DNA from: Nitratireductor sp. GISD-1A_MAKvit
GTDB taxonomy: Bacteria > Pseudomonadota > Alphaproteobacteria > Rhizobiales > Rhizobiaceae
Assembly: GCF_040819555.1 (NCBI RefSeq)
Contig: NZ_CP161920.1
Coordinates: 571,501 to 635,500, forward strand
DNA length: 64,000 bases
Direction: 5' to 3'
The notes beneath the pieces were generated by a model. It searched no databases and was not told the DNA's origin. It saw nothing but the letters and a program-made list of their open reading frames with translations. Positions 32,318 through 55,140 of this stretch are shown piece after piece. A program made the translations under genes and the position numbers. Numbering within the stretch: the first letter of the stretch is position 1; each line of letters opens with the position of its first letter.

Positions 32318-32773
32318 ATGCCCATTCTGCACCCCAAACCGATTGCTGCACTCGTGCTTGCCATTCTGCTAAGCGCTCAGCCTGTCGCCTTTGCCGCCCG
32401 AAGAGAGATGATCTCCGGACCGGTGGAAGCGCGCGTCGTCCGGGTGATCGACGGCGACACGTTTGTTGCCGAGGCGCATGTCTGGCCAGGTCAGCGCATC
32501 ACTGTCAGCGTGCGTATTCGCGGCGTCGATGCGCCCGAAATGCGCAGCCGCTGTGCGGCCGAAAAAGCGGCAGCACGCAAGGCGCGTGCGGTGCTCGACC
32601 GTCTGCTGGCGGAAGGATCCGTGTGGATCAGCGACATCAGCGGTGGGAAATATTACGGGCGCGTGCTTGCCGATGTGACGACGGAGCCGGGCGGGGATGT
32701 GGCTTCGCGCCTGCTCGATGCCCGGCTGGTTGCGGCCTATGGCGGTGGGCGGCGCGTTTCGTTTGTGTGTTGA
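32318..32773 (+). CDS. Thermonuclease (SNase-like) family protein, exported
   Basis: A 151-residue nuclease-fold protein with an N-terminal signal peptide (MPILHPKPIAALVLAILL ... AFAA). SNase landmarks are VIDGDTF, IRGVDAPE and YYGRVLADV. The length fits a single OB-fold domain. It lies 42 bases after the SDHAF4 gene on the same strand. Whether all catalytic arginines are present was not resolved: RIRGVDAPEM supplies one, YGRVL the second. Confidence 0.85.
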   Translation: MPILHPKPIAALVLAILLSAQPVAFAARREMISGPVEARVVRVIDGDTFVAEAHVWPGQRITVSVRIRGVDAPEMRSRCAAEKAAARKARAVLDRLLAEGSVWISDISGGKYYGRVLADVTTEPGGDVASRLLDARLVAAYGGGRRVSFVC

Positions 32774-33019: not shown

Positions 33020-33053
33020 CAGTGCTTTCTTTTCAAACACGCAACCCGCGCTC

Positions 33054-33085
33054 AAAAACAAAAGGCCGTTCCCGAAGGAACGGCC
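33054..33085 (-). terminator. Rho-independent terminator of the small ORF / acs transcript
   Basis: Read on the minus strand, GGCCGTTCC-TTCG-GGAACGGCC (33085-33064) is a perfect 9-bp stem with a TTCG tetraloop followed by TTTTGTTTTT. It ends transcripts coming from acs and the 22-codon ORF. Confidence 0.92.
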
Positions 33086-33153
33086 CCGTGTTTTCGAATT
33101 CTCACGCGGTCATGGCTGGTCTGCGGTGGCAGTCCATCCGCGCTTCATGCGCT

Positions 33154-33222
33154 TCAGCGGGAAGACTGCTCCCCGCGAAGGCAATCCATCGAGACCACGC
33201 TTGAACGGAAATCACTCGACAT
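33154..33222 (-). CDS. Candidate 22-residue small protein with maximal Shine-Dalgarno
   Basis: An ORF of 22 codons (starts MSSDFRSSVVSMDC, ends GEQSSR) between the acs stop and a strong terminator. Its ribosome site, GAAAGGAGGTGATCC with a seven-base spacer from GGAGG to ATG, is complementary to the whole 3' tail of 16S rRNA, far beyond what ordinary genes use. The peptide is not recognised. It contains one Cys and no membrane segment. It may be a real small protein, a leader peptide, or part of a ribosome-binding small RNA; translation is supported only by the SD and position. Confidence 0.55.
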   Translation of the reverse strand: MSSDFRSSVVSMDCLRGEQSSR

Positions 33223-33238
33223 TGGATCACCTCCTTTC
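33223..33238 (-). promoter_or_regulatory. Full-length Shine-Dalgarno sequence
   Basis: The plus strand reads TGGATCACCTCCTTTC, which is identical to the usual 3' end of alphaproteobacterial 16S rRNA; the minus-strand transcript therefore carries its 16-nt perfect complement. No other 16S sequence adjoins it, so it is not an rRNA fragment. Confidence 0.75.
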
Positions 33239-33302
33239 GGTTCGTTGACGACACCACCAATGTGGAGGCGATGACGCCGTCCTGCAAGAGGCAAGCTGGA
33301 AA

Positions 33303-53814: not shown

Positions 53815-55140
53815 CTAGCGGTTCATCACCGCCTTGTCGGGATTGGGCGGGAACGCAGGATCGCTGGTCTCGCCGCGCAGAAGATCGAGCGCCGCATTCA
53901 GCTGCACATCATCTTCCGGCTCCGGGGGGACATAGGCAATGGAGCCCGAACCCTCTTCGCTTTCCTCTTCGCCCTTGATGTGGCCTCGCAGATCCGACTC
54001 GCCACGGCGCAGGTTCCGCCCCTGTAATTCCTCGGGCAATGGCTGATCGACCTTGATGTCGGGCGTAATGCCCTTGCCCTGGATCGATTCGCCCGAGGGT
54101 GTGTAGTAGAGCGCGGTGGTGAGGCGCAGCGCGCCATTTTCACCCAGCGGAATGATTGTCTGGACCGAGCCCTTGCCGAAGGACTGGGTGCCCAGAACCG
54201 TGGCGCGGCGATGGTCCTGCAGCGCACCGGCAACGATCTCGGACGCGCTGGCCGACCCGCCATTGATCAGGACGATCACCGGCTTGCCGTTGAGAACATC
54301 GCCGGGACGGGAATCGAACCGTGCGATGTCGTTTGCATCACGGCCGCGGGTGGAGACGATCTCGCCCCGGTCCAGGAAGGCATCGGAAACGCTGACCGCC
54401 TGATCGAGCAGCCCGCCGGGATTGAGGCGCAGGTCGAGCACATAGCCCTTGAGCTTGTCATCGGGCACCTCGGAGCTGATCGTATCAATCGCGCTCATGA
54501 GGTCGTCGAAGGTCTTCTCGGTGAAGGAGGTGATCTTGAGATAACCGACATCCTCTTCGACCCGGTATTTGACCGCCTTGACCTTGATGATGTCGCGCAC
54601 GATCGTCAGTTCGATCGGCTTGTCTGCTCCCTCGCGCAGGATGGTCAGCTCGATGGGGGTGTTCACCAGACCGCGCATTCTGTCGACGGCGTCGTTGAGC
54701 GACATGCCGCGCACTTCCTCGCCATCGATGGCGGAAATGAGATCACCGGCGAGCACGCCGGCGCGGGAGGCCGGTGTGTCGTCAATCGGTGCGACGACCT
54801 TCACCAGCTCGTCTTCCATCGTGACTTCGATGCCGAGGCCACCGAATTCACCCTTGGTCTGAACCCGCATGTCCTTGGCGGCTTCCGCATCCAGATAGGA
54901 TGAGTGGGGATCGAGCGAGGTGAGCATGCCATTGATGGCGCTCTCCACCAGTTTCTTGTCATCTGGCGGGGTTACATACTGGGCGCGAACGCGCTCGAAG
55001 ATATCGCCGAAGATCGCAAGCTGCCGATAGGTTTCGGAACCGGCTGCATTCGCTGAGAATCCGCTGGTGCCGTGAAGAAGCGAGACCGCGGATGCCCCTA
55101 GGAGGGCGCCGGCGAACAATAGCGACAAGTTACGTTTCAT
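53815..55140 (-). CDS. ctpA: Carboxy-terminal processing protease (S41)
   Basis: Periplasmic serine protease, 441 residues, trimming exported proteins and cell-wall hydrolases. Signal peptide MKRNLSLLFAGALLGASAVS; PDZ domain with GEFGGLGIEVTMEDELVKVV; catalytic Ser in NGGSASASEIVAGAL and Lys in GTQSFGKGSVQ. An acidic C-terminal tail follows. Its start overlaps the envC stop by 11 bases, so the two are cotranscribed; in other bacteria CtpA-type proteases regulate murein hydrolases. Confidence 0.95.
   Translation of the reverse strand: MKRNLSLLFAGALLGASAVSLLHGTSGFSANAAGSETYRQLAIFGDIFERVRAQYVTPPDDKKLVESAINGMLTSLDPHSSYLDAEAAKDMRVQTKGEFGGLGIEVTMEDELVKVVAPIDDTPASRAGVLAGDLISAIDGEEVRGMSLNDAVDRMRGLVNTPIELTILREGADKPIELTIVRDIIKVKAVKYRVEEDVGYLKITSFTEKTFDDLMSAIDTISSEVPDDKLKGYVLDLRLNPGGLLDQAVSVSDAFLDRGEIVSTRGRDANDIARFDSRPGDVLNGKPVIVLINGGSASASEIVAGALQDHRRATVLGTQSFGKGSVQTIIPLGENGALRLTTALYYTPSGESIQGKGITPDIKVDQPLPEELQGRNLRRGESDLRGHIKGEEESEEGSGSIAYVPPEPEDDVQLNAALDLLRGETSDPAFPPNPDKAVMNR

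What the first reader, a model, noticed from the sequence alone, without database searches (positions are those of the whole stretch)
33154..33238. 22-codon ORF with a Shine-Dalgarno sequence complementary to the whole 16S rRNA tail
Downstream of acs, a minus-strand transcript would carry GAAAGGAGGTGATCCA directly before ATG: 16 nt of perfect complementarity to the 16S 3' end, with ideal seven-base spacing, then a 22-codon ORF, a 68-base tail and a perfect TTCG-loop terminator. Ordinary genes in the window use four to seven matching bases. Such a site could drive extreme translation, tether or sequester ribosomes, or act as an anti-ribosomal small RNA with a token ORF. It has its own terminator and a hairpin separating it from acs.
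Basis: partly seen in the sequence, partly recalled or inferred. Interest (0 to 1): 0.75.

Follow-up and report, generated by a model that had tools for sequence, protein, structure and literature searches.

The report
Small RNA with perfect ribosome-binding site
A stretch beside an acetate-metabolism gene appears to make a small folded RNA whose ribosome-binding site matches the tail of the ribosome's own RNA; relatives across the alphaproteobacteria keep that site and a short reading frame while the encoded peptide drifts, which suggests that being translated, rather than the peptide, is what matters.

Summary
At 33238-33154 (minus strand) GAAAGGAGGTGATCCA precedes a 22-codon ORF with promoter-like sequence and a TTCG terminator. 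It is a diverged relative of Rfam small RNA CC2171 (33.9 bits, cut-off 75), found through the Alphaproteobacteria: 61 of 289 class genomes by model; by motif 53 of 86 sampled genomes inside the class, 2 of 213 outside.

In 183 elements the start codon is never CTG. In 124 divergent representatives the first in-frame stop falls in codons 15-36 in 121, against 40 and 45 in the other frames. Yet most clades show little amino-acid-level selection. A helix joining codons 3-10 to the segment before the terminator covaries. About a third (41 of 124) carry an imitation of the 16S tail in the ORF region that pairs with their own SD better than 95% of controls; the 18-codon, mostly Rhodobacterales group shows none (0 of 12). 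No shared downstream gene was seen.

Best reading: a folded, translated small RNA in which ribosome loading competes with folding, the peptide largely a by-product. Expression, ribosome binding and targets are untested.

The parts
33259..33288 (-). promoter-like sequence: CTTGCA (33288-33283), 18 nt, CACATT (33264-33259)
   Evidence: read; parts of both boxes are conserved columns in the 21-sequence alignment. The E. coli-type consensus scan found none. Function inferred.
33244..33247 (-). conserved CAAC just upstream of the SD
   Evidence: CAAC in 73 of 88 non-redundant elements not selected on it, background 2.8%
33223..33238 (-). extended Shine-Dalgarno GAAAGGAGGTGATCCA
   Evidence: complementary over 16 nt to eight same-family 16S tails, which had been fetched with the motif; own 16S tail not in the assembly
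33154..33222 (-). ORF MSSDFRSSVVSMDCLRGEQSSR, 22 codons + TGA
   Evidence: across the family the first in-frame stop falls in codons 15-36 in 121 of 124 representatives
33194..33215 (-). P1 helix, 5' strand (codons 3-10)
33176..33189 (-). internal 16S-tail mimic ATGGATTGCCTTCG that can pair with the SD
   Evidence: L001: -18.2 kcal/mol, 2% of 200 shuffles as good
33157..33176 (-). hairpin GCGGGGAG-CAGT-CTTCCCGC (motif GRG-CARY-CYT recurs in relatives)
33088..33110 (-). P1 helix, 3' strand, abutting the terminator
33053..33087 (-). intrinsic terminator, TTCG loop, T-rich tail
   Evidence: terminators found at 115 of 176 elements against 2 of 443 control windows
33063..33246 (-). span of the RF01867 (CC2171) match, model 1-159, 33.9 bits, below the gathering score of 75

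Best explanation
The element is a free-standing small RNA of about 200 nt, related to the Rfam small RNA CC2171, that is both folded and translated. Its 5' end offers a Shine-Dalgarno sequence complementary to the single-stranded 16S tail. In the third codon a helix (P1) begins that closes the rest of the ORF against the segment just before the terminator, and about a third of the representatives, this copy among those that pair well, also carry an imitation of the 16S tail in the ORF region that can pair with their own SD. Loading of a 30S subunit and translation of the mostly 14-26 codons must therefore open P1 and the SD:mimic pairing, while lack of ribosomes lets the RNA close. I propose that the RNA's activity or lifetime is gated by ribosome loading and that the peptide is largely a by-product. 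Shown by computation: homology, SD, start and stop conservation, P1 covariation, terminator, weak peptide constraint in most clades, no shared downstream gene. Inferred: transcription in this organism, translation, ribosome competition, and any target or readout.
For: RF01867 matches full length (1-159) in all six loci scanned (33.9-49.6 bits, own copy 33.9) and in six of eight, a Brevundimonas copy at 86.1 above the cut-off. 61 of 289 class genomes match the model at E 0.001, nine above the cut-off; of 14 named controls only Caulobacter does. Start codon GTG 111, ATG 68, TTG 4, CTG 0 of 183. First in-frame stop in codons 15-36 in 121 of 124 representatives against 40 and 45 in the other frames; mononucleotide shuffles mean 42.1, maximum 57. 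Nonsynonymous/synonymous ratio relative to neutral in frame 0: 1.13, 0.66, 5.65, 1.21, 0.99, 0.69 in six clades. P1: cognate duplex in the best 5% of shuffles in 50 of 79 and of swapped partners in 39 of 79; basal six pairs complete in 31 of 79 against a mean of 7.8 and a maximum of 15 in 1000 random dealings. SD:mimic pairing in the best 5% of same-locus windows in 41 of 124. Flanking genes: 536 ORFs fall into 397 clusters, largest 14.
Against: No expression, ribosome-binding or target data for this organism. The Caulobacter profiling paper PMC4117421 says, in the passages seen, that ribosome profiling showed intergenic ncRNA regions not to be translated, and that two previously predicted ncRNAs are translated; which holds for CC2171 I could not read. 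The own copy is below Rfam's gathering score; L030 scored only 18.9 bits (E 2.6), and L058 and L215 gave no CC2171 match up to E 0.05. The SD:mimic pairing is absent in the 18-codon group (0 of 12) and not significant in two thirds of representatives. Clade groups were defined by ORF length or peptide start. Some amino-acid constraint is seen: column-shuffle test 11 of 300 in the Rhodobacterales group, 22 of 300 in Rhiz25 and 0 of 300 in MSSE26; nonsyn/syn 1.48 against 2.90 expected and 2.06 against 2.66 in two more clades. ratios for Rhiz22 and Methyl rest on 4 and 6 synonymous changes. Within-group swaps for P1 are weaker (29 of 79). In frame 2 early stops are also few (16 of 124, against 6 in frame 0 and 59 in frame 1). 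Elements were found by their SD or by a model containing it, so SD invariance is partly ascertained; many loci extend only about 1.5 kb each side, so neighbours are incompletely seen.
Confidence: 0.45

Rival explanations
1. An ordinary small-protein gene: a short mRNA with a very strong initiation site whose lineage-specific, fast-evolving peptide is the product.
For: Start codon, frame and stop are conserved; the distal motif GRGCARYCT lies in frame 0 in 37 of 44 occurrences, at 51, 54 or 57 nt, and xCNTGGR in 44 of 55; some clades show constraint.
Against: No third-position excess in the larger clades (1143/1063/1016; 329/462/329; 959/1093/991), ratios to neutral near 1 in most of six clades and not consistently below the wrong frames, peptides of different lineages differ widely by eye, three short peptides tried have no Pfam or NCBIfam match at E 1 and a 59-residue one only sub-threshold matches, and in 7 of 44 the distal motif is out of frame.
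Confidence: 0.22
2. A ribosome-binding decoy: the RNA captures 30S subunits through the 16S tail and holds them (weak GTG start plus strong SD), buffering or lowering translation.
For: Complementarity covers the 16S tail; some base changes in it keep pairing (A-to-G in GATCC five times, C-to-T twice); GTG is the commonest start in the set; the CAAC leader is conserved.
Against: Other changes do not keep pairing (C-to-G four times; the last A varies in 21). The stop position is conserved, which a pure decoy would not need. P1 and the internal mimic would oppose capture. Abundance is unknown and would have to approach that of ribosomes.
Confidence: 0.13
3. A sponge for small RNAs that carry an anti-SD-like seed (such as the alpha-r8 RNAs, UUUCCUCCCU), as CrfA is in Caulobacter.
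For: The G-rich SD is complementary to CCUCC-type seeds (inference); sponging of alpha-r8 RNAs by CrfA is published (PMC12559287, abstract, outline and passages).
Against: The conserved part extends through GATCC, which that seed does not match but the 16S tail does; a conserved start, frame and stop are unexplained.
Confidence: 0.07
4. A cis-acting leader or attenuator of a neighbouring gene.
For: Short ORF, alternative pairings and a terminator resemble attenuators.
Against: No widely shared neighbour among 183 elements: the commonest same-strand downstream gene cluster has six such members; in the window the next gene beyond the terminator is on the opposite strand.
Confidence: 0.03

Closest known systems
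CC2171 small RNA (Rfam RF01867), Caulobacter
   Same: Same SD-start block (model consensus cAAcaAucGAAAGGAGGUGAUCCAGUGUCUC), a closing helix and terminator in the same places, full-length match; the consensus pieced together from that output also encodes an ORF, VSHCHQPRPPAWAWPPPKALSA, from its GUG.
   Different: Own copy scores 33.9 bits against a cut-off of 75; different peptide; Rfam types it as a small RNA gene.
Dual-function small RNAs such as rnTrpL/peTrpL of Sinorhizobium
   Same: Small RNA carrying a short translated ORF in an alphaproteobacterium (PMC10117765, passages).
   Different: rnTrpL is leaderless and corresponds to the trp attenuator; its peptide is functional (same passages).
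Extended Shine-Dalgarno initiation sites of Staphylococcus aureus and of flavobacterial rpsU
   Same: Pairing with more of the 16S tail than usual, in S. aureus also with weak start codons (PMC13009471, abstract, outline and passages; rpsU in PMC10931766, passage).
   Different: Those are protein-coding mRNAs or upstream ORFs, not free-standing folded small RNAs.
CrfA sponge RNA of Caulobacter
   Same: Alphaproteobacterial small RNA that pairs with UUUCCUCCCU-type seeds (PMC12559287).
   Different: Different RNA; no ORF mentioned in the passages seen.

Membership tests
CC2171 (RF01867) | covariance-model score at or above the gathering score of 75 bits | tested here: not met
   33.9 bits; E 5.2e-4, 2.8e-5 in its own genome
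CC2171 (RF01867) | full-length match including the SD-start block and closing stem | tested here: met
   model 1-159 aligned at window 33246-33063, with several non-standard pairs marked in the closing and inner stems; other class members score from 27 to 90 bits
CC2171 (RF01867) | non-coding small RNA | tested here: inconclusive
   frame and stop are conserved, the peptide mostly is not; PMC4117421 passages point both ways and do not name this RNA
RcsR1 (RF02552) | covariance-model match | tested here: not met
   none at the own copy (L001) up to E 1; one weak match in L012 (30.8 bits, cut-off 60)
BjrC68 (RF02353) | covariance-model match | tested here: not met
   none at the own copy; weak 3'-end matches in L018 and L215 below the cut-off of 39
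dual-function small RNA | translated ORF with a functional peptide plus a regulatory RNA activity | not testable with these tools
   sequence supports a kept frame but mostly not peptide selection; targets need experiments
leader peptide / attenuator | conserved regulated downstream gene | tested here: not met
   397 clusters among 536 flanking ORFs of 183 elements, largest 14; flanks short in many loci

The most novel reading that the evidence does not exclude
A class-wide regulatory RNA whose conserved function is to be translated: it carries a perfect complement of the 16S tail and, in many lineages, an imitation of that tail, so that free 30S subunits and the RNA's own fold compete for the same site. 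It would report translation capacity, with a peptide of almost free sequence.
Probability: 0.28. Interest if true: 0.85.

Novelty: new variant of a known kind. Interest (0 to 1): 0.62.

Why it matters
An RNA filed as a small RNA from Caulobacter appears to be a class-wide element under selection for an extreme ribosome-binding site, an open frame and a stop position, but hardly for its peptide. That separates being translated from what is translated, and makes it testable whether an RNA can serve as a gauge of free ribosomes. It also warns that a conserved ORF need not mean a functional peptide, and that CC2171 may be much wider than its Rfam cut-off shows.

Tried and rejected
The fold including the promoter region suggested SD sequestration by upstream bases; dropped because those bases lie upstream of the likely transcription start. 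Homology to RcsR1 was suspected from memory; not supported. BjrC68 was seen only as weak 3'-end matches. RNAalifold on the MAFFT alignment found pairs within the SD-start block, the central hairpin and the terminator, not P1, so P1 was tested by partner swapping. Two plasmid searches gave no match. Pfam and NCBIfam gave nothing above cut-off for four peptides. A near-match to the SD at 54524 is followed by TTG AGA TAA and is not at the start of any of the 52 ORFs tested.

Literature: the term CC2171 is in nine held papers; I saw passages of two that concern this RNA (PMC11701678, PMC5596092) and judged the other seven unrelated by title. The listings, with passages of some of those papers, showed no description of the SD-ORF layout. 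That I did not find it in print rests on these searches only; Landt 2008 is not held and supplementary files could not be read.

Rows dropped: of 192 unique sites, 9 without a start codon were set aside, eight of them antisense 16S and one other, L017; 176 of the 183 elements had 150 nt downstream and were kept; P1 tests used the 79 of 124 representatives with a terminator by my finder. In one search the tally of 147 of 199 includes antisense 16S and chance matches; by my reading of its table the backwards control pattern matched in 12 of 199. In one search the control matched in 1 of 299 (G581).

Full report
What is there. On the minus strand the order is: stop of acs (AMP-binding, ACAS_N), a GC hairpin, a promoter-like CTTGCA-N18-CACATT, a short leader with CAAC, GAAAGGAGGTGATCCA at 33238-33223, ATG at 33222, 22 codons, TGA at 33156-33154, 66 nt, and a terminator with a TTCG loop at 33087-33062 followed by a T-rich tail. 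The gene beyond it (SNase, 32318-32773) is on the other strand. The 16-mer is unique in the own genome. The assembly shows no 16S 3' end, so the own tail cannot be compared; eight same-family tails are fully complementary, but they were fetched with the motif. None of 52 longer ORFs in the window has more than a 6-nt match near a plausible start.

It is conserved. AAAGGAGGTGATCCA occurs in 34 of 199 family genomes. Of the 30 distinct loci then held, 21 show the same layout, eight are antisense 16S and one (L017) is neither. Allowing three mismatches, 147 of 199 family genomes match, including some antisense 16S and chance matches; the backwards control matched in 12 of 199. In the class, 66 of 289 genomes match with up to two mismatches and no printed row matches the control. 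In the phylum sample, by my count of the table, 53 of 86 genomes of the class and 2 of 213 outside it match, the two outside with two mismatches each; the control matched in 1 of 299. Named carriers include Bradyrhizobium, Methylobacterium, Microvirga, Brevundimonas, Phenylobacterium, Azospirillum, Defluviimonas, Roseococcus and Falsiroseomonas.

It is related to CC2171. Rfam RF01867 aligns over its full length with the own copy (33.9 bits) and, in class genomes, with copies from 27 to 90 bits, nine of 289 genomes above the cut-off. In one search six of eight loci match, among them Brevundimonas (86.1), a Rhodobacterales copy (40.0) and Bradyrhizobium (33.3 and 28.3); L058 and L215 do not, and L030 scored only 18.9. 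The own copy is below the curated cut-off, so I call it a diverged relative. The Rfam consensus contains the same SD and an ORF of 22 codons from GUG.

The frame is kept, the peptide mostly is not. The start is GTG 111, ATG 68, TTG 4 and never CTG of 183. In 124 representatives below 72% identity the first in-frame stop falls in codons 15-36 in 121; the other frames give 40 and 45, shuffles 42.1 on average and 57 at most. In the larger clades substitutions show no third-position excess, and nonsynonymous changes relative to neutral expectation range from 0.66 to 5.65 in frame 0, not consistently lower than in the wrong frames. Against this: amino-acid identity beats column shuffles in MSSE26 (0 of 300) and the Rhodobacterales group (11 of 300) and less clearly in Rhiz25 (22 of 300), three close Microvirga-type sequences differ mostly at third positions (2/2/6), and two further clades show 1.48 against 2.90 and 2.06 against 2.66. 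The distal motif GRGCARYCT is in frame 0 in 37 of 44 occurrences and out of frame in 7, so it is partly an RNA motif.

It is folded. A terminator was found downstream in 115 of 176 elements against 2 of 443 control windows, its stem starting a median of 127 nt after the start codon; in those 115 the P1 helix has probability over 0.5 in 82 and the SD core a median mean unpaired probability of 0.33. P1 joins codons 3-10 to the segment abutting the terminator: TCATTGTC/GACAATG, AGTGAT/ATCACG, AGTGAG/CTCACG, AGAGAG/CTCTCG-like and others. Cognate partners rank in the best 5% of shuffles in 50 of 79, of swapped partners in 39 of 79, and of swaps within a group in 29 of 79. The six basal pairs are complete in 31 of 79 against a mean of 7.8 and maximum of 15 in random dealings.

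It can hide its own SD. In the VSHC group the codons TW(I/T)(V/L)AS often read CCTGGATC-NNN-GCCTC-like, an imitation of the 16S tail; the own copy has ATGGATTGCCTTCG. Pairing with the SD is in the best 5% of shuffles in 67 of 176 elements and of same-locus windows in 41 of 124 representatives (VSH 26 of 62, MSS 9 of 31, OTH 5 of 17, LONG 1 of 2, the 18-codon group 0 of 12). SD:mimic and P1 cross, so both together would be a pseudoknot; this was not modelled.

It stands alone. 536 flanking ORFs of 183 elements fall into 397 clusters, the largest with 14 members (many loci reach only about 1.5 kb each side), and two plasmid searches gave no match.

Reading. A strong SD compensating for, and competing with, a folded start region fits better than a design for maximal output, because the start is often GTG and the ORF is enclosed by P1. 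Conserved CAAC leaders (73 of 88) may help loading; that an extended SD can be inhibitory and be relieved by protein S1 I know from recall and from a title in a reference list (Komarova 2002). I therefore propose a translation-gated small RNA, with a small-protein gene as the main rival. The Caulobacter profiling paper reports that intergenic ncRNA regions are not translated but that two earlier-predicted ncRNAs are (PMC4117421, passages); which applies to CC2171 is the first thing to look up. What the RNA acts on is not known from anything here.

Papers. Seen as passages: PMC7143759, PMC5977203, PMC11701678, PMC5596092, PMC4842269, PMC10117765, PMC4117421, PMC3927594, PMC10931766. Seen as abstract, outline and passages: PMC12559287 and PMC13009471. 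Landt 2008 was not held.

Noticed in passing
L118, L097, L041 and other Rhodobacterales loci, just upstream of the element: The promoter region, such as TTGACAAACACAAAATCTGTGTCA, contains a dyad (ACACA and TGTGT), perhaps a regulator site; seen by eye in several members of that group.
   Followed up: no
L058, L076, L084, L130, L131, L184: Azospirillum-type copies have 57-59-codon ORFs with a signal-peptide-like start; possibly a coding derivative of the element.
   Followed up: partly
L215, L216, L235, L241: A group reads GAAAGGAAGGTGATCC, one base longer in the SD, with the ORF start kept; L215 gave no CC2171 match.
   Followed up: partly
G210, G469: Some genomes hold two or three matches, the extra ones in part weak, so the element may be duplicated.
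   Followed up: no
window 33020-32805: Downstream of the terminator lie related palindromic stretches (CCCCTCATCC...GGGGAGAAGG and CCCCTTCTCCCC...GGATGAGGGGC), like an interspersed repeat.
   Followed up: no
own genome G000: No 16S 3' end was found in the assembly by pattern, so the rRNA operon seems missing or incomplete.
   Followed up: partly
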